A program made the position numbers and the translations under genes. Under the pieces are notes generated by a model. That model was not told the DNA's origin, searched no databases, and worked only from the letters and a program-made list of their open reading frames with translations. Source: Akkermansiaceae bacterium (lineage in GTDB: Bacteria > Verrucomicrobiota > Verrucomicrobiia > Verrucomicrobiales > Akkermansiaceae). From it: a stretch of DNA of 64,000 nucleotides. Location: contig JABDRB010000003.1 of the NCBI GenBank assembly GCA_013041925.1, positions 248,001 to 312,000 of the forward strand. Direction: 5' to 3'. Shown in pieces: positions 3,423 through 21,219 of this stretch. Each line of letters opens with the position of its first letter. The first letter of the stretch is position 1.

Positions 3423-3926
3423 ATGCCTTTAAAATCAACACCTACAGCTAGTGCTACCCTTGCTTCGCTTCGACTCTCTGTTCTTGCGTCTGGCGAGTCA
3501 CTACCTAGTAAATACTGGGATAGCTCTGGCCTTAACCAAACTGCCCAGACGGATCTCCGCATGATATTCCCGAGGACATCAATCACTGCGGCTGCCACCC
3601 ATGCTGAAAAATTAGCGCAGACTCATCACGATAAACACACCCGAGCATCTGGAGTCTTCCACCTGTTCAGGCTACCTACTAACATTGAGGCATCGATTCA
3701 TCGTGAAATGATACACTCGATTCCCAATGATCTCGATGTCCAAGCGAATCTCTGGTCAGAACTAGCAGACCTGCCGAAAGCCGATACCTCCGCCGAGGAA
3801 GGCCCGGTTCATCTTGGGGAGCTCAATCTCTCCAAGCCAAAAGACATTGCTAAAATCGCTTACGCATACAAAGCAGCCTTCGATGCTGGCCTTAACTGCA
3901 TTCCCTACTTTACGATCTCAGAATGA
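3423..3926 (+). CDS. brxE: BrxE-family BREX protein
   Basis: A 167-residue cytoplasmic protein. The order of its conserved stretches matches the BrxE family as I know it: an N-terminal LRLSVLASGE segment, a RxxFPRT segment around residues 46-52, the VFHLFRLP motif (78-85), an acidic EGPVHLGEL segment (about 125-133) and an aromatic end (PYFTI). BrxE was defined as the first gene of BREX type 6; its biochemical role is unknown. Here it is also first in the operon and overlaps brxA by four bases (ATGA), indicating translational coupling. Assignment is from motif memory, without a database search. Confidence 0.65.
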   Translation: MPLKSTPTASATLASLRLSVLASGESLPSKYWDSSGLNQTAQTDLRMIFPRTSITAAATHAEKLAQTHHDKHTRASGVFHLFRLPTNIEASIHREMIHSIPNDLDVQANLWSELADLPKADTSAEEGPVHLGELNLSKPKDIAKIAYAYKAAFDAGLNCIPYFTISE

Positions 3927-4714
3927 GCCGCCGCGAGCACTACTCTACTGCGCTTGCCCTATCTCAGGGTATCACGTCCGAATGCCTGTCTTTATTTGAG
4001 ATTTGGCAGGAAGGAATGAACACCACGCAACTCTTTGAGGTCGTTCAATCTACCAATGCTCTGGGTCTCGATTCAGAAAGCCGGCTCAGTCATGTTGTCA
4101 AAGAAGGATTCGGCTCACGCTTCCTGAGAGAGCCCTACATGCAAGCAGCTCCATCGCTCAAGACGATCCTCACCCAGAGTCAGGATCTTAATTTACTGAA
4201 CCAGATCATCCTGCTCTACGCCCTACGCCAGCACGGGATCTTTTTTGACTTCCTTGTGGATGAATACTGGCCTGCTGTCCGGGCAGGTCGACAAAGCATC
4301 AGAAAAAGCGATGTCATCCTCCTCATTGATCGTGGCTTGGTCTCAGGCAGACTCAGCAAGCCATGGTCAGAATCAATGCGAACTCGCGTCAGCAGTTACG
4401 TGCTGGGTATTGCCCACGACTTTGACTTCCTGGGTAATTCAAGATCCGGCACCCGCCCTATCTTGCCATGGACACCTCACGACTCCCTGATCCTCTACCT
4501 CGCGTATGATCTCCACTTTATGGGAGCATCCGATGACGAAGTCGCAGATTCCCCGGAGTGGCAAACTCTGGGACTTCAACGAGAGGACGTTACCCTTTAC
4601 CTCAATCGTCTGCAGAACCAAGGCCACCTAATCGCGCAAGACACCGGTCACCTCTGTAGAATCGACTGGAAATATCAATCACGAGAAGAACTATCCCATG
4701 TCATCCTTTCCTAA
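3923..4714 (+). CDS. brxA: BrxA (DUF1819) BREX protein
   Basis: A 263-residue protein in the position of brxA, with DUF1819-like features: an early KEGFGSRFLREPYMQ-type segment, a central all-helical region rich in Leu/Tyr (ILLYALRQHGIFFDFLVDEYWP), and a C-terminal winged-helix-like part ending near YLNRLQNQGHLIAQ. BrxA is a small NusB-like helical DNA-binding protein in other systems and is required for BREX immunity in some hosts. Its start overlaps the brxE stop and its end overlaps the brxB start by 17 bases. It is somewhat longer than the roughly 200 residues of the common family members. Confidence 0.8.
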   Translation: MSRREHYSTALALSQGITSECLSLFEIWQEGMNTTQLFEVVQSTNALGLDSESRLSHVVKEGFGSRFLREPYMQAAPSLKTILTQSQDLNLLNQIILLYALRQHGIFFDFLVDEYWPAVRAGRQSIRKSDVILLIDRGLVSGRLSKPWSESMRTRVSSYVLGIAHDFDFLGNSRSGTRPILPWTPHDSLILYLAYDLHFMGASDDEVADSPEWQTLGLQREDVTLYLNRLQNQGHLIAQDTGHLCRIDWKYQSREELSHVILS

Positions 4715-5303
4715 ACGTATCGACGAACTTATCCGTCAGCTTGGAACGAGCGCATCCGCGGTCGACTCCAAGCAGGGCGATCGTGTCTATAACTTCCACT
4801 ACCATCCCCATGAATGGACCGAGTTTCGTCAGCAGCTCCAAGTCATTCAAAAGCGTCTGAAAGAGCAAGGGTTCACTCCCCATGTAGCATCCTTCGCAGA
4901 CATCACATTGAACATCTTTCAATCGAGCCCTATCTACAGCGCCCAGGTGAAGATGGAAGGCATGGGAAGCTTCTCTCACAAGATGAGAAACGACAGCCTC
5001 TATAATATCCTCTCAGGATCATCTTCAGATCAGCGCCTCACCACCGATGCCCCGATCGTATCAGCGCTTATAGATAAGCTTCAGGAAACTGCAAAACTCG
5101 ATAACGGCGTTCTCATGCTGACAGACACAGAGACTATTCATCCACTCTTCCGCATCAGCGCCTTTGAACAAATCCTCCAAGGTAAATTCCTGGTTCCCAC
5201 CGTTATTTGCTACCCCGGCGAACGCGGTAATCACGGCGACAACCCCAGCTTCCTTGGCTTTTATAATTCAGACGGCAACTACCGCTCCCAACACATCTAC
5301 TAA
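4698..5303 (+). CDS. brxB: BrxB (DUF1788) BREX protein
   Basis: A 201-residue protein of the length expected for DUF1788. The C-terminal hallmark is clear: VPTVICYPG (about residues 166-174), then SFLGF (184-188) and the terminal YRSQHIY. BrxB is a core BREX component of unknown activity, thought to act with PglZ and the other Brx proteins in the host-modification and phage-blocking complex. It lies between brxA (17-base overlap) and brxC (14-base gap), which fits a single operon. Confidence 0.9.
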   Translation: MSSFPKRIDELIRQLGTSASAVDSKQGDRVYNFHYHPHEWTEFRQQLQVIQKRLKEQGFTPHVASFADITLNIFQSSPIYSAQVKMEGMGSFSHKMRNDSLYNILSGSSSDQRLTTDAPIVSALIDKLQETAKLDNGVLMLTDTETIHPLFRISAFEQILQGKFLVPTVICYPGERGNHGDNPSFLGFYNSDGNYRSQHIY

Positions 5304-5317: not shown

Positions 5318-8300
5318 ATGGCTACTATCAAATCACTCTTCGACGATAACCTCACCTTCGAGCGTCGTGTAGAAAAGGTCATCACCTTCAGTAACCGCGA
5401 AGAAAACATCCTGCGCAATGAAGCTCGAGATTACGTCCTTACCGACAATCTTAGCAGCGAATACGAAAAGCTGCTAAACTTCTTTGATGATGCCCAGTCC
5501 GGCGATGGAGCACCGGAGTGCTGCACATGGCTCTCTGGGTTCTATGGCTCCGGTAAATCCTCTTTTGCTAAATACTTCGGCCTCTGCTTTGATCCGCATT
5601 GCACCGTCGAAAACACACCATTTCATGAGCTGTTCACCGCTCGCTTTGAGAGTAAAACTCTCCAGCAGCGCATCAAGACCCTGACCAAGAAATACAACAC
5701 CTCCGTTTTCTTGCTCGACCTAGCTGCTCAGGGACGATCAGGCTCAAATAACACACCCATATCCACCCTTCTCTTTGATCATGTCTGCGCCTGGGCCGAC
5801 TACCCAAGCGATGCCAAGCTTCAGGAACTCTGCGCCCTCCTAGACCTCAACGATCAACTCGACGACTTCAAACAGAAGTGCACAGACAACACAGGCCTCG
5901 ACTACAAGGACCTCGTCAACCAACCAACGATCCTGATCCCAACAGCCTCTCTCCTGGCTCACGAATATTACCCCAAGATTTGGCAGACCCCGGAGTCGTT
6001 TATGGCGGCCCAATCCATCTCCACAACCAACGATCAGGAGAAGGTCAAACAAATGCTCGATCTGATTCAGAAGAAAACGGAATCCCGCAGGGTGCTCTTT
6101 ATCATTGATGAGGTAGGTCACTTTCTCAGGAATAACCAGAGCCTGATTAGCAATCTTGATGGCCTTGCTAGAAACCTCAAGGAGATTGGCGAAGGTCGGG
6201 CATGGATGATCGCTACCGCACAGCAAACCATTCCCAAGACAGGCCCCCTCTTCGGCCTTCAAGACCGCTTCCCCATCAAGATCGATCTGAAAGCATCAGA
6301 CATACGAGAAATCACCCACAAGCGCCTGCTCAAGAAGAGCGTGAACGGAACATCGCAGCTCAAAAAATCATTTGGTGAACATGGGCAAAAACTCATTCAC
6401 TCCACCAAACTATCCGGCAAGGGCTGCGAGACCTACCCCAAACTCACGGATGCTTCCTTTGTGGATTTCTACCCACTACTGCCACAGCAGTTCGAGCTCT
6501 TGATCGAGGCCATTAGCGCTTTAGCCAAACTTCACGGCGGCGTGGGCCTTCGCTCAGCTATCCGCTGCGTCGAGGAAATTCTCATTAGCAATCACCATGG
6601 CGGACAAGCTCTGATCGAAGATGAGTTCGGCTCTCTTATTACAGCTGGAGACATCTACTCCGTTCTGCACAAAGATATTGTATCAGCAGCCCGTGAAATC
6701 ACCCTCCATGTTGACGCTGTGGCATCAAAGTATGGAGAGCATTCGATGGAGCACCAAGTCGCCATGACTATTGCCGTGCTTCAGCAGATTGATGGCTTTC
6801 CAGCCTCACGTGAAAACGTGGCCGCACTACTCCACCCACACATCGATAGCCAACCACTACTGGATACCACCAATAAGGCGATCGACACCCTCATCAGCAA
6901 CCCTCTCATCCCGGTCGGAGAAGCGGACCACATGCTCAGCTTCTTGAGCGAAGTCGTCTCCCAGATCGAACAAGATCGTGCCACACTGTTGGCTACGTCC
7001 ACCCACAGGGATGCCGTTCAAAGCCATGTCTTAAAAGAGCTCTTCAGCAGACCGCCTAAGGCACTCATTGATGAAACCAAGACCATCGATTCCGGCATCG
7101 CTCTCTTTGATGGTAAGCGAGAGCAAGATGTTATCGGTGGAGACAAAGACATCCGCTTCCTCCTACAGTTAAGTAAGGACTCGGACATCGCGGAAACAAA
7201 AAACAGCCTTACTCAGGAGTCCTTGGGATCACAAAACAAGGCCAAGATTTACCTCTGTGCCATTCAGCCACCTTCCATCAGAGAAGCTTTGGAAGAAGTC
7301 TATCGCGCCGAAGAAATCCGCCGGATGCACCAGAACCACTCCGATCAGGACGTGATCCGTTATCTGGACGGTCAACAACAACTAGCGATTCAAAAACGCT
7401 TGGAGATCAAACAAGCCATTAAGGAGGCCCTCTCTGCAGGATGGTTCATTTTCCGAGGGCAAGCCATTGCCGTGGAGAACCTAGGTTCTAGCCTTGAATC
7501 CGCCACAAAGAAAAAACTCGCGTCCGTGGCTGAAGAAGTCTTCGAGCACTATTCAAAGGCAGCCTTTAACGTCCCAGGCAAAGTGGCTGAAGCATTCCTC
7601 AAAACAAGAGACCTCACACAGATCAATCGTGACCGAGATCCTCTTGAGTTAGTCGAAATCAAAGGCTCTGATACCGAGATTAACCTCAACCACCCCGCCC
7701 TGATGGCCGTCATGGAGTTCTTCCAACGTCACCCTAACCCGGATGGAAAGAGAATCCTAACAGAGTTCTCCAATCCCCCCTACGGTTGGACCAAGGACAC
7801 GACACGCTATTTGCTCGCAGCCCTCTTCTACGCTCAAAAAATCAAACTCAAGGTCAACGGGAACGACCTCACCGTCATTGGCAGTCAATCCTTTGAAGCA
7901 TTTAAAAACAACAGCAGCTTCAACAATGTCACCGTTAATCCGAATCACGACGAAGAACCAGATGGGGTGAGGCAAGCCGCAGCCAAGCGATTAAGTGATC
8001 TCACAGACGAACAAGTCATCGCTTTACCTCAGAGAATCGCAGAAATTGCTTCTAAATACCTACCTAAGTTCCAGAGCGAAGTCCAGGGACTGCCAATCAA
8101 AGTCCAACCTCTAGGCATCGACACCGATCGTTTATCACGCCTTCAACGTAGTCTAACCGAGGCTCTCATGGGCGACGGGGCGGGAGCCACCCTCCTTTTT
8201 GGTGCAGATGAAAGTGAAATCTACGATGATCTCATCTGGGCCCGTGACCTCAAGAAAGCACTGAATCCGGGCACAGTCGAATTACTCAAAGAGCTTACCG

Positions 8301-8887
8301 CTCTTGACCAACAAGTTGCCGGCCTCAACCAACAAGGTCAGCTCACAGAACTCCAGGACATATGGTCTCAAAAATCCAGTGATCCACTCAAGCGGGTCAA
8401 AGACGGATCTTTTGTCAATGACATCCCGGACCTATCCCTGAAAGTCGAGGAACTGAAAGGATTGGTCAATGAACACTGCAACAGCTACGCAACCGAGAAA
8501 AAATCTCAAGTTCAGGATCAAATTGACGCCCTTCTCGGTTCACAAGAATATCGAAGTCTGGATGAACAGGAGCAGGAATCTTTCCAGGTAATGGCCGAAG
8601 ATGTGCTTCCCTACCTTGACGCCACCATCTCGGGTATTCAATCTGCCCCGAATCAGATCGTTTCATCCTTGGCACAGCTGCATAAGGTCCGCACCCAAGT
8701 CCAGGCTGCCGCGCAACCACCTAAACCTCCTGAGCCACCAGAACAGCCCAAACCAGGAACCGTGTCCAAGAAGATCACAACAACTCTCAATTCAACCGAC
8801 GACCTCGACAAGCTGATCTCGGAACTACAAACCCTGCGTGACCAACTAGAAGAGGGCAAATCCATCACACTGATCAGTGATCACTGA
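5318..8887 (+). CDS. brxC: BrxC P-loop ATPase
   Basis: A 1189-residue ATPase, the usual size for BrxC. The P-loop GFYGSGKSS lies at residues 74-82 and a Walker B element FIIDEVGHF at about 261-269, followed by a probable sensor segment (WMIATAQQT). The N-terminal MATIKSLFDD...RRVEKVITF opening is typical of BrxC/PglY proteins. The C-terminal half contains long charged helices and a Pro/Lys/Glu linker (PPKPPEPPEQPKP, coded at about 8715-8760). BrxC is an AAA+-like ATPase of the BREX core, essential for defence and methylation in studied type 1 systems. It ends 22 bases before the pglX catalytic ORF. Confidence 0.93.
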   Translation: MATIKSLFDDNLTFERRVEKVITFSNREENILRNEARDYVLTDNLSSEYEKLLNFFDDAQSGDGAPECCTWLSGFYGSGKSSFAKYFGLCFDPHCTVENTPFHELFTARFESKTLQQRIKTLTKKYNTSVFLLDLAAQGRSGSNNTPISTLLFDHVCAWADYPSDAKLQELCALLDLNDQLDDFKQKCTDNTGLDYKDLVNQPTILIPTASLLAHEYYPKIWQTPESFMAAQSISTTNDQEKVKQMLDLIQKKTESRRVLFIIDEVGHFLRNNQSLISNLDGLARNLKEIGEGRAWMIATAQQTIPKTGPLFGLQDRFPIKIDLKASDIREITHKRLLKKSVNGTSQLKKSFGEHGQKLIHSTKLSGKGCETYPKLTDASFVDFYPLLPQQFELLIEAISALAKLHGGVGLRSAIRCVEEILISNHHGGQALIEDEFGSLITAGDIYSVLHKDIVSAAREITLHVDAVASKYGEHSMEHQVAMTIAVLQQIDGFPASRENVAALLHPHIDSQPLLDTTNKAIDTLISNPLIPVGEADHMLSFLSEVVSQIEQDRATLLATSTHRDAVQSHVLKELFSRPPKALIDETKTIDSGIALFDGKREQDVIGGDKDIRFLLQLSKDSDIAETKNSLTQESLGSQNKAKIYLCAIQPPSIREALEEVYRAEEIRRMHQNHSDQDVIRYLDGQQQLAIQKRLEIKQAIKEALSAGWFIFRGQAIAVENLGSSLESATKKKLASVAEEVFEHYSKAAFNVPGKVAEAFLKTRDLTQINRDRDPLELVEIKGSDTEINLNHPALMAVMEFFQRHPNPDGKRILTEFSNPPYGWTKDTTRYLLAALFYAQKIKLKVNGNDLTVIGSQSFEAFKNNSSFNNVTVNPNHDEEPDGVRQAAAKRLSDLTDEQVIALPQRIAEIASKYLPKFQSEVQGLPIKVQPLGIDTDRLSRLQRSLTEALMGDGAGATLLFGADESEIYDDLIWARDLKKALNPGTVELLKELTALDQQVAGLNQQGQLTELQDIWSQKSSDPLKRVKDGSFVNDIPDLSLKVEELKGLVNEHCNSYATEKKSQVQDQIDALLGSQEYRSLDEQEQESFQVMAEDVLPYLDATISGIQSAPNQIVSSLAQLHKVRTQVQAAAQPPKPPEPPEQPKPGTVSKKITTTLNSTDDLDKLISELQTLRDQLEEGKSITLISDH

Positions 8888-8909
8888 TCACTACCCAATA
8901 CTTCAACTC

Positions 8910-10997
8910 ATGTCCTTCGACACAGATACCCGTAACCGACTCGCATCCTTCGTTGGCAAGTGCCGCGACCTGCTCTGCGGTGACTTTAATTCTCCCGGTG
9001 GTGAGATGGCTCGCCAACTCGCCAATTACGGAATCCAAGATACCGGCGATGCATTTGAGGTCGACACCCTCACCCACCTCGATGAACCGGGGCTAGAGAC
9101 TGCACGCACCCTGCGCTCCATTCTGACCCATAAGTCAGCAACAGCGCCTGCTGCCAAGGTATGGAAGAAGTTTGACCCAGCCGTTTATGATCTGATCCAG
9201 GAACAAGGATTTACAGTGCTTAATCGTCTCTGTGCCTTGCGCATGGCGGAGGAACGTAAAATCCTCGAGTTCCCGTGCATCTCTGCGGGTCTCCAGTCGG
9301 ATGGCTTTCAGCTCTACGAATACCACACCGGCAAGGCGAATGCGGACATCAGCCCTGAAGTTCGCTACCAACACTTTCTCTTTTCCCTCTTTGATGAGCT
9401 TTCGCTCGATCTTGGCTCCTTATTCGATCGCTTTAGCCCGCAGGGATTGCTCTTCCCCTCTACTCAGGCACTTGCAGATCTGCTCGAGGAAATCAATCAC
9501 CCTGATCTCGCCCACCTCTGGGGCGAGGATGAAACCATCGGTTGGATCTACCAATACTGGAACTCCCAGGAAGAGCGGAAAGCCATGCGCGACGCCTCCG
9601 CCGCGCCTCGCAATTCCCGTGAGCTCGCCGTGCGCAACCAGTTCTTCACGCCTCGCTACGTTGTCGAGTTCCTAACCGATAACTCCCTCGGCCGCACTTG
9701 GTATGAAATGACTCAGGGTAATACCGCACTCAAAGACAATTGCACATACTTGGTCCGCCGTCCTAGCGAAGTCTTTCTAGAGGAAAACGAACCTGCCCCT
9801 GTGTTAGAAAAACCTGACACTGATCTTCCCCAAGCAGAACAGCTCAAGCAGCCCGTCTATATCCCCTTTCGGCCTCATAAAGACCCTCGCGAGATTCGCT
9901 TGCTAGATCCAGCTTGTGGATCGATGCACTTTGGTCTGTATGCTTTCGATCTGTTTGAAACCATCTACAGTGAAGCCTGGGATCTCAACGTCGCATCACT
10001 GCAGGAAGAATTCCCTACCAAGGAAGCGCTTCTACTCCAGATGCCTCGGCTCATCATAGAAAACAACATCCACGGGGTAGACATCGACCCCCGGGCTACT
10101 CAAATTGCGGGTCTTGCGCTCTGGCTACGAGCACAGCGCACATGGAAAAATCAAAAGGTATCAGCTAGCGATCGCCCCAAAGTCAAAAGCTCCAATATCG
10201 TTTGCGCCGAACCCATGCCGGGCGACCAGGAACAGCTCCAAGAGTTTACCCAGCAGCTTCACCCTGCCATCGCCCAGATGGTAACCCATATTTTTGAGGA
10301 AATGCAACTTGCTGGCGAAGCGGGGTCACTGCTGAAAATCGAGGAGAAAATCACCACTCTTGTAGACGAGGCTAAAGACGCCTGGAAGAAGATCGGCAAA
10401 CATGAAGGTGAAATGTTCTCCTCGGCCGAGCTGGTTAATGCCGACCACCGCTCTGGCACTCAAACTCAGCTCGATATTGGGTCATGGGATCTCGAAACTC
10501 TCTCTGCCATTTCCGACAGCGAATTCTTTGAGCAAGCCGAACAATCGATCTATAACGAGCTCGCCCGCTACGCCGAATCCGCCGGTCAAGGTTCCTACAA
10601 ACGCAAGCTCTTCGCCAACGATGCTGCACAGGGCTTCGCTTTGATCGACCTCTGCCGGAAACGTTATGAGGCAGTCGTGATGAATCCACCATTTGGAGAT
10701 TGGTCGACCAAGTTCAAAGCCCAATCGCGAAAAGACTACCCGGTCAGCTACAACGATATTATGGGGGCCTTCGTCGAACGCGGAGGTCGACTACTTAACC
10801 CAGGTGGCCGAGTTGGTTCAATCACCTCCCGCACCTGTTTCTTCCTCTCATCCTTCACCAAATGGCGCGAACAAATCGTCCTCGACTTACTGACACCAGA
10901 ATACTTGGTTGATCTAGGTCACGGTGTGATGGATGCCGCCATGGTCGAAGCAGCCGCTTACGTGTTGCTTAAACCACAAACTCCAGCGAAGAACTAA
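8910..10997 (+). CDS. pglX: PglX catalytic part (adenine-specific DNA methyltransferase), split gene
   Basis: A 695-residue protein that corresponds to the N-terminal and catalytic half of PglX. The ATG at 8910 gives the MSFDTDTRNR start I associate with this PglX group; an upstream in-frame start at 8877 would overlap brxC. The SAM-binding motif I (DPACGS, about residues 332-337) and the N6-adenine catalytic motif IV (NPPF, about 591-594) are intact. The protein stops just after the VDLGHGVMDAAMVEAAAYVLL segment, where full-length PglX proteins continue into a target-recognition region. The stop TAA is followed after one base by the ATG of the next ORF. It should methylate adenine in the host BREX site when joined by specificity parts encoded downstream. 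Confidence 0.88.
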   Translation: MSFDTDTRNRLASFVGKCRDLLCGDFNSPGGEMARQLANYGIQDTGDAFEVDTLTHLDEPGLETARTLRSILTHKSATAPAAKVWKKFDPAVYDLIQEQGFTVLNRLCALRMAEERKILEFPCISAGLQSDGFQLYEYHTGKANADISPEVRYQHFLFSLFDELSLDLGSLFDRFSPQGLLFPSTQALADLLEEINHPDLAHLWGEDETIGWIYQYWNSQEERKAMRDASAAPRNSRELAVRNQFFTPRYVVEFLTDNSLGRTWYEMTQGNTALKDNCTYLVRRPSEVFLEENEPAPVLEKPDTDLPQAEQLKQPVYIPFRPHKDPREIRLLDPACGSMHFGLYAFDLFETIYSEAWDLNVASLQEEFPTKEALLLQMPRLIIENNIHGVDIDPRATQIAGLALWLRAQRTWKNQKVSASDRPKVKSSNIVCAEPMPGDQEQLQEFTQQLHPAIAQMVTHIFEEMQLAGEAGSLLKIEEKITTLVDEAKDAWKKIGKHEGEMFSSAELVNADHRSGTQTQLDIGSWDLETLSAISDSEFFEQAEQSIYNELARYAESAGQGSYKRKLFANDAAQGFALIDLCRKRYEAVVMNPPFGDWSTKFKAQSRKDYPVSYNDIMGAFVERGGRLLNPGGRVGSITSRTCFFLSSFTKWREQIVLDLLTPEYLVDLGHGVMDAAMVEAAAYVLLKPQTPAKN

Positions 10998-10998
10998 G

Positions 10999-11061
10999 AT
11001 GATCTGTTTCCGATTACTTGATTCTAACGATCCCGCACAGCCACTGGCTGATGCGGTGCGC
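10999..11061 (+). repeat. 5' edge repeat of the PglX recognition modules (copy 2 at 11835-11897)
   Basis: The first 63 bases of module 1 recur at the start of module 2 with only scattered, mostly third-position differences; the first 15 bases are identical. The copies are in direct orientation, 836 bases apart, and sit exactly at the ORF starts. Confidence 0.85.
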
Positions 11062-11838
11062 GCACTTGCTAGCGAGACGGCCAGCCAAGACACCTACGAA
11101 GTCGAACCAGCCTCCTTCCGTCACATTCCAAATGCTCCTTTCGCCTATTGGGTCAGCGAAAAAATCAGGAAGCTATTTGTCACACTCCCACCGTTTGAAA
11201 ATGAAGAAAGAACTGCCACAGTAGGATTGCAAACGGGTGACGACTTTCGATTCGTCCGCATTGGATGGGAATCACCTGTCAATCAAAGCGAACTGACAAA
11301 TCGCACATGGTTCCACTTCGCAAAAGGTGGTAGTTACTCCCCCTTTTATGCGGATGTATTCCTGAAAGTGAATTGGCATGATTCAGGACTAGAACTAGAT
11401 ACTTTTGCAGGCAGTGTCTTGAGAAACACTAATTACTACTTTCGCCCAGGGCTAACTTGGCCAAGAAGAACTACAAGCGGCATGTCACTCAGAGTTATGC
11501 CTGCAAATTGTGTATTTGGGGACAAGGGGCCTGCAATTTTCATGGAGGGCTCTGACAGCGCAAGTTTCCTAACAACACTAACGATCATTCTAAGCCAACC
11601 TTGTCTTGCTCTAATAAGCTTACAACTCGCAGCAGCAGATGCAGCTGCAAGGTCATACGAAGTGGGTGTCATTCAACGCACAGTTATTCCCAACAATAAT
11701 GATAATAAACTTCCGAATCTAGCAACACATGCCTGGCAGAATAAGCGCAAGCCAGACACTGCAAATCTCACTAGTCACGCATTTGTTGCACCTGCGTTAG
11801 CCCCTTCGAGAGTCCGATCAACCCCAGATAGCAAATGA
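10999..11838 (+). CDS. PglX target-recognition module 1 as a separate ORF
   Basis: A 279-residue protein paralogous to the following ORF. Both begin MICFRLLDS, share PFAYWVSE (about residue 47), KGGSxSxxYAD, FRPGLTWPRRT, FxDKGPA and SFEVG/SYEVG-type segments, and end in WQNKRKPDTANLTSHAF. These are landmarks of the region after the methyltransferase core in full-length PglX, where DNA-sequence specificity resides. The differing central parts suggest different targets. The start is one base after the catalytic ORF's stop, in another frame, and its stop overlaps the ATG of the next module (ATGA). Encoding as a stand-alone chain is unusual. It presumably assembles non-covalently with the catalytic and C-terminal chains, like an HsdS subunit; this is an inference. 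Confidence 0.75.
   Translation: MICFRLLDSNDPAQPLADAVRALASETASQDTYEVEPASFRHIPNAPFAYWVSEKIRKLFVTLPPFENEERTATVGLQTGDDFRFVRIGWESPVNQSELTNRTWFHFAKGGSYSPFYADVFLKVNWHDSGLELDTFAGSVLRNTNYYFRPGLTWPRRTTSGMSLRVMPANCVFGDKGPAIFMEGSDSASFLTTLTIILSQPCLALISLQLAAADAAARSYEVGVIQRTVIPNNNDNKLPNLATHAWQNKRKPDTANLTSHAFVAPALAPSRVRSTPDSK
11731..11790 (+). repeat. 3' edge repeat of the PglX recognition modules (copy 2 at 12585-12644)
   Basis: About 60 bases near the end of module 1 recur near the end of module 2. The first 23 bases are identical and the remainder differs at few, mostly silent positions. Together with the 5' edge repeat this frames the diverged specificity-determining centre of each module. Confidence 0.85.
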
Positions 11839-12677
11839 TCTGTTTCCGACTACTTGATTCTAAAGACCCTGCACAGCCTCTGGCTAATGCGGTGCATAGG
11901 CTAGCTAAAAGCGAGGCGACCGAAAACATTTACACAGTCGACCCATCGTCATTTCGGAAAGTTCCGAACTCCCCATTTGCATATTGGGTAAGCGAGAGGC
12001 TGCGTTCAATCTTCGTAAACACCTCCCCCTTAGAAAATAAAACTAGGACAGCGCGGCTAGGCTCCGGGGCTAGAGATGATTTCAGATACCTCCGATTAAG
12101 TTGGGAAGCTCTTACATCTGGGCAACACGGCTATGGTCAATGGGTCCCCTTTGCAAAAGGAGGAAGCTTTTCGAGATACTATGCCGACATCCACCTCTTG
12201 GTAGACTGGGAGCCACGTCGCAATACATTCCTAGGTTTTTTAGGTAGACCTGGTCGTTGGATTTCACGTCCAGAATCAGTTGATATGTTTTTCCGTCCAG
12301 GCCTAACCTGGCCACGACGAACAAATGGACTTTCTTTTCGAGTCATGCCTTCTAATTGTATTTTTGCTGATAAAGGTCCTGCTGTTTTTCTTAAAGAAGA
12401 TAATGCAGTGTCGATCTTTGCACTTGCTGCAATTGTGAACAGTAAATCTTTCGGTGCTTTAGTTCGAGTACAGCTAGCGCGAACTGAACTAGCTCAATCT
12501 TTTGAAGTTGGCCTAATCCAGCAGACTCCAGTTCCAGACTTATCACCGATCAACATCGAGACCTTCGCTATGCTAGCTAAATTAGCCTGGCAGAATAAGC
12601 GCAAGCCCGACACTGCGAATCTCACGAGCCATGCCTTTATCTGCCCAGCCCTCACACCACGATCCAAACATATTTAG
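11835..12677 (+). CDS. PglX target-recognition module 2 as a separate ORF
   Basis: A 280-residue paralogue of the preceding ORF, with the same start (MICFRLLDS), end (WQNKRKPDTANLTSHAF) and internal landmarks (FAYWVSE, FAKGGSFSRYYAD, FFRPGLTWPRRT, FADKGPAVF, SFEVGLIQQ). The middle, including residues 75-145, is strongly diverged from module 1, which fits a second DNA specificity. It is in the same frame as the PglX C-terminal ORF and is parted from it by one TAG codon (12675-12677) followed directly by ATG. Stop-codon read-through would therefore yield a fused 703-residue chain. Which of the two modules is used, or whether both are, cannot be told from sequence. Confidence 0.75.
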   Translation: MICFRLLDSKDPAQPLANAVHRLAKSEATENIYTVDPSSFRKVPNSPFAYWVSERLRSIFVNTSPLENKTRTARLGSGARDDFRYLRLSWEALTSGQHGYGQWVPFAKGGSFSRYYADIHLLVDWEPRRNTFLGFLGRPGRWISRPESVDMFFRPGLTWPRRTNGLSFRVMPSNCIFADKGPAVFLKEDNAVSIFALAAIVNSKSFGALVRVQLARTELAQSFEVGLIQQTPVPDLSPINIETFAMLAKLAWQNKRKPDTANLTSHAFICPALTPRSKHI

Positions 12678-13946
12678 ATGAACTCAGAATCACCCAATCC
12701 ATTGAAACCTGAATCCACACCGACACTCAACGAAGGCGTCGACAATTGGTCGGCACTCTTACAACACAGCGAAGCTGAACTCGCAAAGACCCAGGAGCAA
12801 ATCGATGAAATCGCCTATGAGCTGTATGGCATTGAAGGCGACGACCGCGCGTCGATCGAAGCCATGATGGATACCTCCAAATCTGACATGGATGAAGGAG
12901 ACGAAGCCGAAACTCTTATTACAGCAGATCCCGCCACACTGACCTCCGAGTTACTTGATTACTGTGTCGGCGTCGTATTTGGCCGTTGGGACATCCGCTA
13001 TGCAACCGGCGAGAAACCAGCACCACCTGAACCAGATCCTTTTGAAGCCCTACCACTCTGCGCCCCGGGCATGTTACAAAACGATGAAGGCCTACCAGCG
13101 AAACCAGAAGAAGTCGATACCAACTATCCAATCCGTATTTCCTGGAATGGTATCCTCGTCGAAGATGCCGCCCACAATGAAGACATCTTTAATCGAACCG
13201 TCGAAGCTCTGACAGTGATGTGGGGCGAACAATCAGGAGCAATCCAACAAGAAGCCTGCGAGATGCTCAAAGTAAAAAAACTCCGTGACTATTTCGCCGA
13301 GAAAAAAGCAGGTGGTAAGTTCTTCAAAGAACACCTATCCCGCTTCAGCAAGAGCCGACGCAAGGCTCCGATTTACTGGCCCCTCTCCACCGAGTCCGGA
13401 ACCTATACCCTCTGGTTCTACTACCACCGTCTCGATTCCGACACTCTCTACACCGCTGTCAGTTTCATCGAAGACAAACAAGAAGAAGTCGCCAAAACCT
13501 TTGCCGATCTCAGTGCAAAAAAGAGTCGAACCAAAGAAGAAGACAAAGAACTCGAAGCCGCCCAACTTCTGGTCGCCGAACTACCCACCTTCCGCGAAAG
13601 CCTACTCGACATCGCCAAATTCTGGAAACCCAACCTCAACGACGGTGTCCAGATCACCGCCGCCCCACTCTGGAAACACTTCCGCCTCAAGACCTGGCAG
13701 AAACTCCTCAAAACCACCTGGACTAAGCTCGAAAAAGGCGAATACGACTGGGCCCACCTAGCCCACTCAACCTGGCCTGAGCGAGTCATCCCCAAATGCC
13801 TCACCGACCGTTCCCTAGCCATCGCCCACGGCCACGACGACGCCCTCTGGGAACCCTACACCGATGATCGAGGCAAAGAAAAATGGCGTCTCAAAAAAGA
13901 CGCCAAGGAAACCGTTGAACAACTCGTAAAGAAAAATCAGTCATGA
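12678..13946 (+). CDS. PglX C-terminal part as a separate ORF
   Basis: A 422-residue protein. Near residues 30-55 it carries a coiled-coil-like helix ending in DEIAYELYGI, a motif that follows the target-recognition domain in many adenine methyltransferases, and its downstream part (YPIRISWNGIL, SKSRRKAPIYWPLS, TYTLWFYYHRL, FWKPNLNDGVQITAAPLW) matches the C-terminal domain of long PglX proteins. Summed with the catalytic ORF and one recognition module the length is about 1400 residues, close to a complete large PglX. It starts directly after module 2 and overlaps the FRG gene by four bases. It is needed for a complete enzyme if the subunits assemble. Confidence 0.75.
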   Translation: MNSESPNPLKPESTPTLNEGVDNWSALLQHSEAELAKTQEQIDEIAYELYGIEGDDRASIEAMMDTSKSDMDEGDEAETLITADPATLTSELLDYCVGVVFGRWDIRYATGEKPAPPEPDPFEALPLCAPGMLQNDEGLPAKPEEVDTNYPIRISWNGILVEDAAHNEDIFNRTVEALTVMWGEQSGAIQQEACEMLKVKKLRDYFAEKKAGGKFFKEHLSRFSKSRRKAPIYWPLSTESGTYTLWFYYHRLDSDTLYTAVSFIEDKQEEVAKTFADLSAKKSRTKEEDKELEAAQLLVAELPTFRESLLDIAKFWKPNLNDGVQITAAPLWKHFRLKTWQKLLKTTWTKLEKGEYDWAHLAHSTWPERVIPKCLTDRSLAIAHGHDDALWEPYTDDRGKEKWRLKKDAKETVEQLVKKNQS

Positions 13947-14848
13947 GAACTTTACACAGCGACAAAGTGTGGTCGTATTTTGATGCTCACCCAGAAGGTA
14001 AAAAGAAGGAGTGTCAGCTCAGAAAAGAGAACGGGCTGGTGGTCACTAGCTATCATGACCTTGCGTGTAAAATCGCTGCATTACAATTCAACAACCCAAA
14101 CTTTGTCCTCCTATTTCGAGGACAATCATCTGACCGACGTCACCATCACAGCCGGAATACAACGATTCGCCCAAACATTTTCCGGGGTGATCAAGGCCTC
14201 GATGTTGACGAATGGAATAAGATGCTAGAAAATCGCTACAAAACTCTGCATTTGGCTGAAGATCTGTTGATTCAAAAATGGCCCGAACTAGAAAAAGGTA
14301 AGTTCAGGATACAACGGAGTGCCGTGATCCGCTGGGCCATCCTACAGCACTATGAAGTATGCCGCACGCCTTTGCTGGATCTTACACATTCGTTGAGAAT
14401 TGCCGCTTCATTTGCATCGCTAGCAAATGCCTCCGGGGAAACCCCAGAAGATTTAGCTGATGAATCGATGGCGGAAGATGCCTTTTTAATGGTTCATGCA
14501 ATCCCCCAGATTGGAGGGGGCGTCAGCACCTGCGCCTATGATGAAATGCAAACACTACGGCTTGCAAGCATCTGCCCTCCATCTGCCATGCGTGCTCACC
14601 TTCAAGAGGGTTATCTCATTGGAGAGTATCCTGAACTACAGACATTTAGACAAAAAATGAATTTGGATCTGGATGAAACCGACTTCGGTAAACGTCTGAT
14701 TGCTAAGTTTAAATTCAAGCCCAGTGAGTTTTGGGACAGCGAGGATACCTTCGCCCGTATACCCAAGCCCGCACTTTACCCCAACGATGATGACTCACTA
14801 TATCGCACTTGTTGTGAGATAAAATCCCAGCTCCCCGAAACACCATGA
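13943..14848 (+). CDS. FRG-domain protein embedded in the BREX operon
   Basis: A 301-residue protein with the FRG-domain signature: FRGQ at about residues 58-61, an intervening Arg-rich segment, and HYEVCRTPLLDLTHSL followed by RIAASFA (about 136-158), corresponding to the H-x-G-x-x-T-x-L-L-D-x-T core of the family. FRG proteins are common in defence islands and mobile elements; the biochemical activity is not settled, though an ADP-ribosyltransferase-like toxin fold has been proposed for relatives. It overlaps the PglX C-terminal ORF and the next gene by four bases each (ATGA), so it is translationally coupled and belongs to the operon. It is not a BREX core gene. Confidence 0.75.
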   Translation: MRTLHSDKVWSYFDAHPEGKKKECQLRKENGLVVTSYHDLACKIAALQFNNPNFVLLFRGQSSDRRHHHSRNTTIRPNIFRGDQGLDVDEWNKMLENRYKTLHLAEDLLIQKWPELEKGKFRIQRSAVIRWAILQHYEVCRTPLLDLTHSLRIAASFASLANASGETPEDLADESMAEDAFLMVHAIPQIGGGVSTCAYDEMQTLRLASICPPSAMRAHLQEGYLIGEYPELQTFRQKMNLDLDETDFGKRLIAKFKFKPSEFWDSEDTFARIPKPALYPNDDDSLYRTCCEIKSQLPETP

Positions 14849-16567: not shown

Positions 16568-19117
16568 ATGACCTTCGCCGAACACATCCGCCAGAACATC
16601 TTCTTACCCCGTTTGACCGAACGCAGGATTCTAGTCGTCTATGATGAACATGACAGGTTCAGAGAAATCTGTGCCGGCCTTAACAGTGAACAGTGTAAAG
16701 TGATCTTCACCGATAAACGTCCCGTATCGTCTCGGCAGGAAGCTATGGAACGATGGAAGGAAATGTCTATGGATCAGACATACCAAAGCCAAATGTTAAT
16801 CCATTGCAACGATCCAGCTCCAAAGGACGACGATGAACGCCAGGAACATCCATTAGCTTCCTATGCTGCTGTTGGAGCATCTTTCCCATCCCGGGCCAGT
16901 GATGAATACAAACAACTCTGCTATGGCTTCCTCAAGGATCGCACTGCGGAAATCGACCAACTCTTCGCCGGCGATACAGAACCCACATTCTCCCTGATCG
17001 ACAACTTGTCCGCAGGCTCCCACTCACACCCTCAACTTCAGGAACTGTTTGGCACGGGTGACGCTTCCAAAATCATCCCCAATTTCTTGGTGCCCCCTGA
17101 AGACTCCGAAATCGAGGACTTGCTTGATAGCAACACGGGCTGGTGTCAGGAAATGCGAGAATTACTGAAACGAACTCTAGGGCTAGGAATCAATACAAAG
17201 AGCACAAAGGCTGTGGCCATGCGCGACAAACTCTGGCAATTCCTCTTGTTTAGCGAGTTTTGCAATGATCTCCCAGGAGGTATACCATCGACCTTAGCTG
17301 ATCTACCCAGAGCCACCGGAGCCCAACTTCCTTTTGCTCTGAGTCTCTGCGCCGACCTCCGACTCCACACCAACAAAAAAGAGTCCTATCGAGATGCCGC
17401 TCTGAAGATTGAAGCGGCCCTTGATCTCGAACAGGAATGCGTCAACATCATCGATCTGGGAATGACAGACACCTTTTCCTTTGAAGAGAAGAACTTCCTT
17501 AAACAAGCAGCAACAGCCATTCGAGCCCGGGAATGGGATACAGCTCGAACCATTCTCGATTCCCATAAAACGAGTCTGTGGACAGAGGAGGGAGAGCGTA
17601 AACTCCTGTGGCATATCCTGGAGCTGGGACTGGACACACTGGAACAGATCAAACGAGCTGAGATTCACCTCAAGCATCTAGGCCACGAAGGCAAGGAACT
17701 GTGTGAACTCTTCGATACCGAGTTAATCAAGGTGGACCGCACCTACCGTAACCTAGAAGATGCTGCTGCCCAAATTTACCAAGAGTATGGTGAGGTAGAA
17801 GACATCATCAATGCAACCCGTCAGGCATACCGTAACCACTTTAACCAGCTTCAAGCTAATTTGCTAGGCGTTGTGCAACGTGAAGGCTGGCCTCTTAACG
17901 GAATGCCATCTAACCAGAGCAGCTACAACGATCAGGTGCATACCGCACTTCGCAACAATAAACGGGTTGTCTATTTCCTCATCGATGCCTTACGCCTCGA
18001 CCTGGCTCAAGACTTAGTGGGGAGTATCCACGACCATCAGGTGAGTAGCGTGCCAGCATGTGCTCAGCTTCCTTGTGTGACTCGCTTTGGTATGGCTTCG
18101 CTGTTACCGGACGCGGAGGACAAACTTAAATTCATCGAAAATGGAGGCGAGATCATTCCCATTCATGGAGAAACCAATGTCAAGACCCGCACAGCTCGCC
18201 TAGGGGTATTTGAATCCATGCTCAATGACCGGGTCACTACCAGCAATCTGGCGGATTTTATTAGTAATACCAGAACGCCAAGCAGCCTAACTACTTATCA
18301 GAAGAAGACCGCTCAATGCGACCTCCTGGTGCTCACCAGCACCGAGCTAGATGCACTCGGAGAGGGTCAATCCACCAGTGAACTACAGCTCATCCCGTCA
18401 GTCATGCGTAAGTTAAAACTCGCTATTTCACGCTGCGCCGAACTCGAATACGATACCGCAGTCATAGCGACAGACCATGGATTCATCTGGGTTGAGGATT
18501 CAGATGCGGGATCGGTTTGTGAAAAACCCGCCGGCGAGTGGCCCCTGATCAAACGTCGCTGCCTAATCGGCCAAGGTGATGATACTCCCGGAACTCAAAA
18601 ATTCACGACCAAGGAGCTAAGTATTCCCACTGAGCTGCCAAGCTTTGTTGTGCCCAAAGCGCTCGCGACATTCAGTAAGGGGGTTGGGTATTTCCATGAA
18701 GGGCTATCACTGCAAGAAAGCATCGTTCCCCGCGTGGTGATTAATTTCACCAAAGCAGCAACCTCGCAATCCAGAGGCAATCCAGAAGTCGAACTCTCCC
18801 GTAAAAAGAAAAACTTCAGCAGCCGGATCGTCTCGGTCAACATCGCATGGCCGGGAAGCCCAGATATGTTCTCTGAATGCACTGAGTTCAAACTCGTCGC
18901 GTTCCAGAACAGACATGAAATCGGGTTCCCCTCCTCAGGAGAAAAAGTAGATCCCGCATCAGGCCTCATCAAAATGAAACAGGGCGAAGCGATCAAGGTG
19001 AGTCTCCGACTTACTGAAGATGCCAAAGAAGGCCCGGTGCATATCAAAGCCATCAACCCAGCCACCGAGAAGGTCATCGACTCTCTAGAACTCAACTTTA
19101 AATCCCACGTATTTTAA
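16568..19117 (+). CDS. pglZ: PglZ alkaline-phosphatase-superfamily BREX protein
   Basis: An 849-residue protein of the size usual for BREX PglZ. The PglZ domain is evident from VVYFLIDALRLDL (about residues 467-479, where the Asp replaces the nucleophile region of the alkaline phosphatase fold) and the metal-binding IATDHGF motif (about 632-638). The N-terminal 450 residues are alpha-helical, as in other BREX PglZ proteins, and the C-terminal part is a beta-rich domain. PglZ is a core component found in all BREX types; metal-dependent nuclease activity has been reported for a relative. It is followed five bases later by brxL. Confidence 0.92.
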   Translation: MTFAEHIRQNIFLPRLTERRILVVYDEHDRFREICAGLNSEQCKVIFTDKRPVSSRQEAMERWKEMSMDQTYQSQMLIHCNDPAPKDDDERQEHPLASYAAVGASFPSRASDEYKQLCYGFLKDRTAEIDQLFAGDTEPTFSLIDNLSAGSHSHPQLQELFGTGDASKIIPNFLVPPEDSEIEDLLDSNTGWCQEMRELLKRTLGLGINTKSTKAVAMRDKLWQFLLFSEFCNDLPGGIPSTLADLPRATGAQLPFALSLCADLRLHTNKKESYRDAALKIEAALDLEQECVNIIDLGMTDTFSFEEKNFLKQAATAIRAREWDTARTILDSHKTSLWTEEGERKLLWHILELGLDTLEQIKRAEIHLKHLGHEGKELCELFDTELIKVDRTYRNLEDAAAQIYQEYGEVEDIINATRQAYRNHFNQLQANLLGVVQREGWPLNGMPSNQSSYNDQVHTALRNNKRVVYFLIDALRLDLAQDLVGSIHDHQVSSVPACAQLPCVTRFGMASLLPDAEDKLKFIENGGEIIPIHGETNVKTRTARLGVFESMLNDRVTTSNLADFISNTRTPSSLTTYQKKTAQCDLLVLTSTELDALGEGQSTSELQLIPSVMRKLKLAISRCAELEYDTAVIATDHGFIWVEDSDAGSVCEKPAGEWPLIKRRCLIGQGDDTPGTQKFTTKELSIPTELPSFVVPKALATFSKGVGYFHEGLSLQESIVPRVVINFTKAATSQSRGNPEVELSRKKKNFSSRIVSVNIAWPGSPDMFSECTEFKLVAFQNRHEIGFPSSGEKVDPASGLIKMKQGEAIKVSLRLTEDAKEGPVHIKAINPATEKVIDSLELNFKSHVF

Positions 19118-19122
19118 CCATT

Positions 19123-21219
19123 ATGAAACTCGACGACATCGACAATAAACTAACCGAAGCCTTTGAAGGCCGCTGCGTGCGCAAAGACCTTGTGCAACGG
19201 ATTAAAAAAGGAACTAACATCCCGACCTTCGTTCTCGAGTTTCTGCTCGCCCGTTACTGTGCATCCGATGATCCTGATGAAATCAATGAAGGCCTGCTTG
19301 CCGTCACTGAAACTATCCAACTGAACTACGTGCGCCCTAACGAGGCGAACAAAGCGCAGTCGATGGTCCAACAAAAAGGAAAACACAAATACATCGATAA
19401 GGTGCACGTGCATCACAACGAGAAAGAGAAACGCCACTGGGCGGAGATGCAAAACTTCGGCTCAAAACGTATTGCCATCAACGAACGCCACTACCGGGAT
19501 AATAATCGATTACTCGAAGGCGGCCTCTGGTGCGAGGTGACGGTGGGTTATAATGAAGTGGAGGATGACGATTACACCTTCTACATCGAGGAGCTTCGCC
19601 CCATTCAAATATCAAGATTTTCCTTTGAAGATTACTGCGAGTGCTGTGCTAAGTTCTCCCGAGATGAGTGGCTTGCCATCGTGCTAAGAACTCTCGGCCT
19701 GGAACCAAACGAACTCACTAAGCGTCAGCAGTTCCATTTTCTCTCTCGCCTCTTCCCCCTCATTGAGCAGAACTACAATTTCCTAGAACTCGGCCCACGA
19801 GGAACAGGCAAGTCCTACGTCTACAGTGAGTTCACCCCCTACTCAACACTCATCAGTGGCGGCCAAACAACCACCGCTACCCTCTTTTACAACAAGCAGC
19901 GTCGTCAGGTAGGAATCATCGGCTATTGGGACACCATCGCCTTTGATGAAGTCGCCGGAATCAAAGTCAAAGACCCCGGCACCATACAGATCCTTAAGGA
20001 CTATATGGCAAACGGTCACTTCAACCTTGGGGCTGAAGTAATGGCACCTGCCAGCTTGTCATTTGTTGGTAACATCGATGACTCGATCGAGCAGCTCGTA
20101 GCATCAGAGCAGCATGATCTCTGCCGACCTCTGCCTAAGGAGTTCGACCTCGCCGTCATCCACAGATTCCACGCTTACATGCCCGGATGGGAAATACCTC
20201 CAAATAGCAGCAAACTTCTCACAGATCACTATGGCCTGATCACCGACTACTTAGCTGAGGCTTTCCACCACTTGTTTTCAAAGGTCAATCTCTTCTCCCC
20301 CATCAAGAGCCAACTCAAGCTCAACAACATGCACGAAGGTAGGGATGAAACAGCCGTCATTAAAACTGTCGCCGCCTTCTGCAAGATGCTTCACCCAGGT
20401 GGTGAGCCGTCGCCAGAAGAACTGGATGAATACACCCAATATGCCATCGAAGGAAGACGCCGAGTCAAAGAGCAGCTCAACAAACGCAAAAAAGATGATG
20501 AGTTCGGTAACATCAAACTCGGATTCATCAATGCAAAGGGCCAGGAAGTCATCGTCCACTGCCCGGAGTCCAAAGGCGTGGACGCCACACAATCCCCAAG
20601 GAGAAAGCCTGAGGAAGAAGAGGGGGTGGATGTCAGTATAGATGCAATTGCTGAGACCAAGATAGCCCCCAAAGCTAAAACAACTGAAGCAGCACCTATA
20701 GAAGATCAACCTGAGGACAGTGTTTCAATTCCTTCTCCAGAACCCACTGAACTAAAGGAAAAAGAAATCCGTATATTCCATGGCGATCGTGGGTTCTCCT
20801 ACCGATCGCTTTTCCTCGACTACCTTCAAGGAGCCAAGAAAGTTCGACTGGAAGACCCCTACATTCGCAGGCATCATCAAATCACCAACTTCCTGCACTT
20901 CTGCGAAGTCTGTGTCGACGCCGGCACCGTGCAAGAAATCCACCTCACCACATCCTACGAGGACGAAGAGGAGAAAAAAGAAGCCGGGGTCAAGATTATA
21001 GCTATTGCGAAGAGCTTAGCCGAACACGGAATCAAACTCGACGTCACAATGAGCGAAACCCTCCACGACCGCCGGATCGAACTCGATAACGGCTGGACCA
21101 TCACTCTAGGCCGAGGCCTCGACTTCTATCAACGCCCAGACGACTGGCTTGAGATCGGAGCCAACGAACTCAACCTCCGCCAGTGCACCGAGACCACGAT
21201 TAATTATAGGAAAGTGTAA
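19123..21219 (+). CDS. brxL: BrxL AAA+ protein with MITD1-like C-terminal domain in place of a Lon protease domain
   Basis: A 698-residue protein. Residues 1-490 match the short BrxL core: an N-terminal DNA-binding-like region, Walker A GPRGTGKS (about 224-231), Walker B IAFDEVAG (about 272-279), sensor-like SLSFVGNID (about 304-312), ending after KLGFINAKGQEV. A charged Pro/Glu/Lys linker (about 495-545) follows. Residues 548-698 then show EDPYIRRHHQ, NFLHFCE, HLTTSYED, LHDRRIELDNGWTI and GRGLDFYQ. This order closely resembles the phospholipase-D-like C-terminal domain of eukaryotic MITD1 (MIT_C). I see no Lon-type Ser-Lys protease domain. BrxL forms a DNA-threading AAA+ ring in characterised type 1 systems; the tail may target it to a membrane or partner. 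Confidence 0.85.
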   Translation: MKLDDIDNKLTEAFEGRCVRKDLVQRIKKGTNIPTFVLEFLLARYCASDDPDEINEGLLAVTETIQLNYVRPNEANKAQSMVQQKGKHKYIDKVHVHHNEKEKRHWAEMQNFGSKRIAINERHYRDNNRLLEGGLWCEVTVGYNEVEDDDYTFYIEELRPIQISRFSFEDYCECCAKFSRDEWLAIVLRTLGLEPNELTKRQQFHFLSRLFPLIEQNYNFLELGPRGTGKSYVYSEFTPYSTLISGGQTTTATLFYNKQRRQVGIIGYWDTIAFDEVAGIKVKDPGTIQILKDYMANGHFNLGAEVMAPASLSFVGNIDDSIEQLVASEQHDLCRPLPKEFDLAVIHRFHAYMPGWEIPPNSSKLLTDHYGLITDYLAEAFHHLFSKVNLFSPIKSQLKLNNMHEGRDETAVIKTVAAFCKMLHPGGEPSPEELDEYTQYAIEGRRRVKEQLNKRKKDDEFGNIKLGFINAKGQEVIVHCPESKGVDATQSPRRKPEEEEGVDVSIDAIAETKIAPKAKTTEAAPIEDQPEDSVSIPSPEPTELKEKEIRIFHGDRGFSYRSLFLDYLQGAKKVRLEDPYIRRHHQITNFLHFCEVCVDAGTVQEIHLTTSYEDEEEKKEAGVKIIAIAKSLAEHGIKLDVTMSETLHDRRIELDNGWTITLGRGLDFYQRPDDWLEIGANELNLRQCTETTINYRKV

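What the first reader, a model, noticed from the sequence alone, without database searches (positions are those of the whole stretch)
19123..21219. BrxL ends in a MITD1-like domain and has no Lon protease domain
Seen: after the AAA+ part and a charged linker, residues 548-698 carry EDPYIRRHHQ, NFLHFCE, HDRRIELDNGWTI and GRGLDFY in the order found in the C-terminal domain of human MITD1, a phospholipase-D-like fold without catalytic HKD residues that binds membranes and acts with ESCRT-III. Known: characterised BrxL proteins form AAA+ rings on DNA and longer members end in a Lon-like domain. Inferred: this variant may tether the DNA-acting ring to membrane or to a partner, a new mode of BREX action. 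Whether this fusion has been reported I cannot say.
Basis: partly seen in the sequence, partly recalled or inferred. Interest (0 to 1): 0.87.

Follow-up and report, generated by a model that had tools for sequence, protein, structure and literature searches.

The report
BREX BrxL with MITD1-like tail
A bacterial phage-defence ATPase ends in a domain closely related to the tail of a human cell-division protein; this protein type is already catalogued as a likely DNA-acting variant of BrxL, and the kinship with the human protein appears to be the less-noticed part.

Summary
Window 19123-21219 (+) encodes a 698-residue BrxL whose last ~150 residues are an MIT_C domain (PF16565, E 9.6e-48), not Lon. 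Its predicted fold (pLDDT 96) matches human MITD1 at TM 0.92, 41% identity, then the phospholipase-D superfamily, which includes DNA-cutting restriction enzymes.

Two corrections. First, this is no oddity: 19 of 45 BrxL ORFs sampled end this way (17 of 43 without the window and a chosen centre), PADLOC has a full-length profile for it, and a 2026 paper counts 1030 of 2913 BrxL with an "HKD-endoDNase" bearing an HRD motif. That is almost certainly this domain, since the other 21 long tails read were all Lon-like. Second, the catalytic motif is not simply missing: it reads H648-x-R650-x4-D655; H and R are kept in 99 of 99 distinct domains, D in 94.

I favour a DNA-directed PLD-like effector over a membrane tether, with a dead structural module close behind. 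No activity is shown. One dynamin-MIT_C fusion keeps the membrane idea alive.

The human domain groups with one BrxL clade (moderate support, up to 50% identity). My searches found no paper linking MITD1 with BrxL.

The parts
19123..21219 (+). brxL, 698 aa, BrxL_N + AAA+ ATPase + linker + MIT_C (PLD-like) domain
19156..19551 (+). BrxL_N domain, residues 12-143
   Evidence: PF20442 E 2.2e-44
19579..20517 (+). AAA+ ATPase domain, residues 153-465; GPRGTGKS (Walker A, name recalled) at 224, FDEV (Walker B, name recalled) at 274
   Evidence: PF13337 E 5.7e-112; motif positions
20581..20745 (+). linker of low-complexity make-up, probably flexible, residues 487-541
   Evidence: pLDDT under 50 and no secondary structure, but that model is also under 50 over much of the AAA+ part; length varies among relatives
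20791..21207 (+). MIT_C / PLD-like domain, residues 557-695
   Evidence: PF16565 E 9.6e-48; domain model pLDDT 96.2; TM 0.92 to MITD1
21064..21087 (+). HxRx4D motif H648-R650-D655 (HDRRIELD)
   Evidence: position; H 99/99, D 94/99, R 99/99
16568..19117 (+). pglZ, immediately upstream (5 bases between)
5318..8887 (+). brxC
3423..5303 (+). brxE, brxA, brxB
8877..13946 (+). pglX split over four ORFs (methyltransferase; two tandem homologous middle modules; C-terminal part)

Best explanation
This is the BrxL of a BREX locus with the type-1 core genes, in which the C-terminal Lon-like domain is replaced by a phospholipase-D-fold domain of the MIT_C family. The N-terminal and AAA+ parts presumably assemble as a ring on DNA, as the solved BrxL does. 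The C-terminal domain hangs on a long, probably flexible linker and works as a DNA-directed effector: a remodelled HKD-type phosphodiesterase, with H648 as presumed nucleophile, R650 in place of the usual lysine, and D655, which cuts or grips phage DNA held by the ring. PLD domains with one motif per chain usually pair to form a composite active site (recalled), so pairing of these domains within or between rings could supply both the activity and the ring-ring contact that the Lon-like domain gives in the solved BrxL. Shown here: domain identity, fold, motif conservation, BREX context, linker length. Inferred: flexibility of the linker, DNA as substrate, catalysis, pairing.
For: Profile, sequence and fold identity. 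After MITD1 the second-look rows are mainly PLD-superfamily proteins, among them Tdp1 Z 9.9, the restriction proteins SauUSI 9.8 and NgoAVII 9.5, NucT 9.2, Zucchini 8.3, BfiI 8.0. The triad is complete in 94 of 99 distinct domains, H and R in 99 of 99; these residues were not part of the scan patterns that fetched 80 of the loci. The profile places HDR on HDRFLIID of an ORF6N-PLD protein (hhalign probability 46%, P 2e-4), whose same stretch matches MIT_C and PLDc_2, both below cut-off. Of 80 named loci, 78 carry a BrxL core and 70 carry pglZ within the fetched flanks. A 2026 comparative study reads BrxL-HKD as a nuclease effector (section read). The Lon-like domain it replaces joins two BrxL rings in the solved structure (passages).
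Against: No activity has been shown for this domain. K is replaced by R, and where the usual GSxN motif (recalled) would lie it reads RGLD, so the site may not be catalytic. Human MITD1, reported as a membrane binder, keeps the same H, R and RGLD and differs in the triad only at the D (N in human), so conservation of H and R need not mean catalysis. Five of 99 domains lack the D. The domain's net charge is -6, which does not favour DNA binding in a simple way. hhalign found no match to a single-motif Nuc-like protein of the same genome. Foldseek's own next matches after MITD1 are led by a viral envelope PLD, phosphatidylserine synthase and PLD3, not by restriction nucleases. A long linker argues against a rigid ring-joining role.
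Confidence: 0.5

Rival explanations
1. Pseudo-enzyme: the domain is a catalytically dead PLD fold used for dimerisation or for binding DNA phosphates or a BREX partner, taking over the structural role of the also inactive Lon-like domain.
For: The Lon-like domain of the solved BrxL joins two rings (passages) and is described as lacking its catalytic dyad, so the position tolerates a dead module. K to R, RGLD in place of GSxN, and H/R kept in MITD1. FAM83B, a PLD-fold protein recalled as non-catalytic, is among the structural neighbours, Z 8.6.
Against: The D of the triad is kept in 94 of 99 domains. The linker is long (76 residues in the window), against about 29 residues between ATPase and C-terminal domain in the solved BrxL (469 to 498), so it is not a like-for-like structural swap.
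Confidence: 0.35
2. Membrane tether: the domain binds anionic lipid as in MITD1 and holds the DNA-acting ring at the membrane where phage DNA enters.
For: 41% identity and TM 0.92 to MITD1, whose domain is reported to bind membranes (passage) and PI(4,5)P2 (table row). A bacterial dynamin-like protein ends in MIT_C (Thiodictyon, L026). Next Foldseek matches include a viral envelope PLD and phosphatidylserine synthase.
Against: Bacteria as a rule lack PI(4,5)P2 (recalled). BrxL has no hydrophobic stretch; in the locus only the two pglX middle modules reach a 19-residue mean over 1.6 (1.82 and 1.67; threshold recalled). The dynamin fusion was seen once and keeps HDRYVVCD, so it does not separate lipid from phosphodiester chemistry. 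Net charge is -6, though the human domain has the same.
Confidence: 0.12
3. Acts on phospholipid: the domain is an active phospholipase D unleashed by BREX recognition to damage the host membrane (abortive infection).
For: Foldseek and VIA list lipid-acting PLDs and phosphatidylserine synthase among the neighbours.
Against: The same lists also hold nucleases; nothing seen in the locus points to membrane damage.
Confidence: 0.03

Closest known systems
BrxL-HKD of type-1 BREX (Rakesh and Krishnan, NAR 2026, PMC12839542; PADLOC profile PDLC02508)
   Same: Same AAA+ core with a C-terminal domain bearing an H-R-D motif in place of Lon; the PADLOC profile covers residues 4-697 of this protein.
   Different: The paper calls it an HKD-endoDNase; MITD1, 'MIT domain' and ESCRT do not occur in its text. 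That both are the same domain is my inference; its supplements were not seen.
Human MITD1 C-terminal domain (PDB 4a5z, 2ymb)
   Same: Same Pfam family and fold, TM 0.92, 41% identity; H, R and RGLD kept.
   Different: Its N-terminal partner is an MIT domain that binds ESCRT-III, not a AAA+ ring; the third motif residue is N, not D.
Solved BrxL (PDB 8emc/8emh; Acinetobacter, organism recalled)
   Same: N-terminal and AAA+ parts homologous over residues 5-471.
   Different: C-terminal domain is Lon-like and begins about 29 residues after the ATPase domain.
PLD-fold restriction proteins SauUSI, NgoAVII R, BfiI
   Same: Same superfamily fold by structure comparison, Z 8.0-9.8; restriction enzymes by their entry titles.
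   Different: Sequence identity 7-12%; classical HxK (recalled) against HxR here.

Membership tests
MIT_C (PF16565) | score over the curated cut-off | tested here: met
   162.2 bits against 25
MIT_C (PF16565) | fold of the MITD1 C-terminal domain | tested here: met
   TM 0.92, rmsd 1.2; Z 25.3
MIT_C (PF16565) | membrane binding (reported for MITD1) | not testable with these tools
   needs a lipid-binding assay
MITD1 protein | N-terminal MIT domain | tested here: not met
   Pfam finds BrxL_N, BrxL_ATPase and MIT_C only
BrxL | BrxL_N plus BrxL_ATPase with P-loop motif | tested here: met
BrxL | place in a BREX operon with brxA, brxB, brxC, pglX, pglZ | tested here: met
BrxL with Lon-like C-terminal domain | Lon-like domain after the ATPase | tested here: not met
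   TIGR02653 and 8emc stop near 490 and 471; a Lon-tail profile made here hits none of the MIT_C proteins at E 1e-3
PLD-superfamily HKD enzymes | PLD fold | tested here: met
PLD-superfamily HKD enzymes | HxKx4D motif, strict | tested here: not met
   HxRx4D
PLD-superfamily HKD enzymes | phosphodiesterase activity; pairing of two motifs | not testable with these tools
   needs assay and oligomer data

The most novel reading that the evidence does not exclude
The membrane-binding tail of the eukaryotic ESCRT-III cofactor MITD1 descends from a bacterial phage-defence domain of the BrxL kind. The ancestral function was phosphate-backbone (DNA) chemistry or binding at an AAA+ ring, and eukaryotes turned it to phosphoinositides after loss of the motif aspartate.
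Probability: 0.35. Interest if true: 0.72.

Novelty: new member of a known kind. Interest (0 to 1): 0.45.

Why it matters
If the tail is an active phosphodiesterase, this BREX variant carries a nuclease built into its DNA-binding ring besides PglZ, and that is directly testable by point mutation. Naming the domain as MIT_C also ties a published BREX effector to solved human structures and suggests that part of the eukaryotic abscission machinery has kin, perhaps ancestors, in bacterial immunity.

Tried and rejected
A Lon domain hidden by divergence: rejected. Lon-related models and the solved BrxL stop before the linker, and a profile built from the 21 Lon-like tails hits none of the MIT_C proteins.

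A rare or window-specific fusion: rejected. 24 of 72,556 plasmid records hold the domain; the match lies under a feature named brxL in 17 of the 24. No match in 50,697 phage records at E 1e-3. In viral contigs 25 of 51 stretches, 24 loci, encode relatives; of the 24 domain-bearing ORFs, 23 carry a BrxL core and one (L180) joins a PglZ part to the BrxL linker and tail. A viral-contig scan with the single protein P0001 found none.

Weak MIT_C matches at 20.1-25.5 bits in the window's phylum (10 of 24 rows, three of them over the cut-off): three that I read in the right frame (L015, L020, L022) look like ABC-transporter ATPases, and L024 is an ORF6N-PLD protein. The other six were not settled. 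All ten were set aside.

Residue mapping by hhalign to a single-motif Nuc-like protein of the same genome (L169): no useful match. The full-length model is of low confidence (mean pLDDT 62.8) and falls under 50 also over residues 220-362 of the AAA+ part, so its low values at 487-541 are weak evidence for disorder. One origin of the MIT_C tail on the BrxL-core tree: the free tree needs two changes, but one clade is not rejected (AU p 0.114). Poxvirus F13, polyphosphate kinase, TrmB, FAM83 and others appear only as structural neighbours. Hydropathy was the only membrane test run.

Full report
What is there. The window's ORF 19123-21219 (+) gives 698 residues and a stop. Pfam divides it into BrxL_N (12-143), BrxL_ATPase (153-465) and MIT_C (557-695, E 9.6e-48, 162.2 bits, cut-off 25). 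phmmer against PDB sequences finds the solved BrxL only up to residue 471 and human MITD1 over the tail (2ymb E 2.3e-34, 4a5z E 3.9e-33). The Lon-related NCBIfam model ends at 490.

Fold. An alignment of 32 tails gave a model with mean pLDDT 96.2. Foldseek's first five PDB matches are all MITD1 (best E 7.4e-21, TM 0.92, 41% identity); the next, at E 1.5e-4 to 5e-3, are the vaccinia envelope protein F13, phosphatidylserine synthase, PLD3 and a Streptomyces PLD. VIA-align, a second look at Foldseek's own list, gives MITD1 Z 25.3, then a gap, then mainly the phospholipase-D superfamily: Tdp1 9.9, SauUSI 9.8, NgoAVII R 9.5, NucT 9.2, PLD3/4 8.9, phosphatidylserine synthase 8.9, FAM83B 8.6, Zucchini 8.3, BfiI 8.0, Nuc 7.4, with polyphosphate kinase and TrmB rows among them. 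That output warns that Z under about 8 may be a common arrangement, and a shared fold shows no function.

The motif. Here the stretch is HDRRIELD, that is H648-x-R650-x4-D655. Over 99 distinct domains (107 aligned; L001 and L110 dropped as copies of other rows, L013 and L014 as fragments, then identical rows merged) H is kept in 99 and D in 94 (S in 3, N in 2), and R in 99. The scan that fetched 80 of the loci used patterns on DPYIR and RGLD, so conservation of those two stretches is partly built in, but that of H, R and D is not. Human MITD1 reads HDREIRFN: H and R kept, D replaced by N. A profile comparison sets HDR on HDRFLIID of an ORF6N-PLD protein (L024; probability 46%, P 2e-4), whose same stretch matches MIT_C and PLDc_2, both below their cut-offs. 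A Nuc-like protein of the window's own genome gave no match. The motif is thus HKD-like with R for K; whether it is catalytic is open.

How common. In the window's phylum, 24 of 387 genomes match MIT_C at E 0.001 and 17 pass the cut-off; 14 of the 24 rows score 55 bits or more. In the phylum of a Bradyrhizobium genome, 7 of 398 pass the cut-off, the centre included. Searching two samples drawn in the same way for the BrxL ATPase gave 28 of 387 and 17 of 398 genomes over the cut-off and 48 loci, from which 45 BrxL-core ORFs were read (L148 partial, L149 and L168 under the cut-off gave none): 19 end in MIT_C, 21 in a Lon-like tail, 4 have no tail, 1 has a tail of only 80 residues. Without the window and the chosen centre it is 17 of 43. 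None of the 21 Lon-like tails has an HxK/Rx4D string; all 21 match one profile, which was built from them, and one of them matches the solved BrxL end to end. This makes it almost certain, though not shown sequence by sequence, that the 'BrxL-HKD' with an 'HRD motif' counted by Rakesh and Krishnan in 1030 of 2913 type-1 BrxL (PMC12839542, BrxL section read in full) is this MIT_C architecture. They cite an earlier report, which is not held. PADLOC's profile PDLC02508 covers residues 4-697 of this protein and matches all 20 members of the full-length alignment A4, window included. Another paper lists PF16565 as part of BREX, citing a previous study (PMC12715929, passage). The fusion is therefore in print.

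Context. The operon runs brxE, brxA, brxB, brxC, pglX (split), an FRG-domain ORF, two ORFs without a family match in Pfam and PADLOC, pglZ, brxL. In 80 named loci with the domain, 78 have a BrxL core and 70 have pglZ within the fetched flanks. Outside BrxL I saw the domain in a dynamin-like protein (L026) and in a protein annotated with an IF-2 N-terminal domain (L109), once each; in a broken Hymenobacter BREX locus it is a separate ORF.

Evolution. On a tree of 35 BrxL cores the MIT_C proteins fall into two well-supported groups, A (11 rows, with the window; HDREIR type) and B (7 rows plus the short-tailed L130; mostly HARHIV type). Lon-tailed cores form two groups plus one long stray row, L126. 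With the four tailless rows and L126 left out (30 rows) the free tree does not unite the MIT_C proteins, but one clade is not rejected (p 0.114). On a tree of 27 tails alone, human MITD1 groups with A (support 89/84, not starred), apart from B, L109 and the long-branched L026; its best identity is 50% with an A tail, 41% with the window, and 26-31% with the ten B tails among the twelve lowest printed. With one eukaryotic sequence and no root this suggests, but does not prove, that the MITD1 tail branched from within the BrxL-type diversity. No held paper has both BrxL and MITD1. Searches on MIT_C/MITD1 with bacteria, on MITD1 with cytokinesis, on MITD1 with Asgard/ESCRT (15 of 18 listed), on BrxL with HKD/PLD (15 of 37 listed) and on BREX with dynamin or MIT domain (10 of 77 listed) listed none that I recognised as making the link (listings and abstract starts; passages read).

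How it may work. In the solved BrxL the rings load on DNA and the Lon-like domain, which begins about 29 residues after the ATPase domain, joins two rings (passages). Here the replacement hangs on a longer linker: 76 residues in the window; median 74, range 62-123, in 82 proteins with a GRG string in the tail; median 60.5, range 52-77, in the 14 without (this string sorts nearly but not exactly as the tree). The full-length model shows no structure at 487-541, but it is weak evidence, since the same model is also under pLDDT 50 over much of the AAA+ part. A PLD-fold module tethered to a DNA-bound ring is most simply a DNA-directed effector. Catalysis is inferred. The rival that it is a dead, pairing or phosphate-binding module is nearly as likely, because human MITD1 keeps the same H and R while being described as a membrane binder. 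A membrane role is possible but has only analogy and one dynamin fusion for it; BrxL has no hydrophobic stretch (best 19-residue mean 0.99), and in the locus only the two pglX middle modules pass 1.6 (1.82, 1.67). The domain's net charge is -6, as in the human domain.

Verdict. Observation confirmed; interpretation partly supported; the protein is a member of a known BrxL variant; the MITD1 kinship is the part worth follow-up.

Noticed in passing
window 8877-13946: pglX is split over four ORFs: methyltransferase part, two tandem middle (target-recognition-like) modules 49.8% identical over 281 columns with nearly the same end, and a C-terminal part; two alternative specificity modules are possible.
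   Followed up: partly
L029-L108: Among 80 named loci with MIT_C BrxL, pglX is a separate methyltransferase ORF plus a recognition ORF in 20 and fused in 18; 42 could not be classified.
   Followed up: partly
L026:7619-10462: Dynamin-like GTPase ending in MIT_C on a Thiodictyon plasmid, with HDRYVVCD; no gene annotated as BREX in the 20 kb shown.
   Followed up: partly
L109:11431-12480: Protein annotated with an IF-2 N-terminal domain ending in MIT_C on a Paenarthrobacter plasmid; no gene annotated as BREX in the 24 kb shown.
   Followed up: no
L180:2294-4231: One ORF in a viral-contig record joins part of PglZ to the BrxL linker and MIT_C: deletion or assembly chimera.
   Followed up: no
window 13943-14848: FRG-domain ORF inside the BREX operon, followed by two ORFs without a family match in Pfam and PADLOC.
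   Followed up: no
L025: Hymenobacter plasmid BREX locus with brxL annotated in several pieces and the MIT_C domain as a separate ORF.
   Followed up: no
window 3423-3926: brxE beside a brxL; the 2026 paper recounts BrxE as exclusive to type 6 and BrxL as specific to types 1 and 4, so this locus mixes marks of two types.
   Followed up: no
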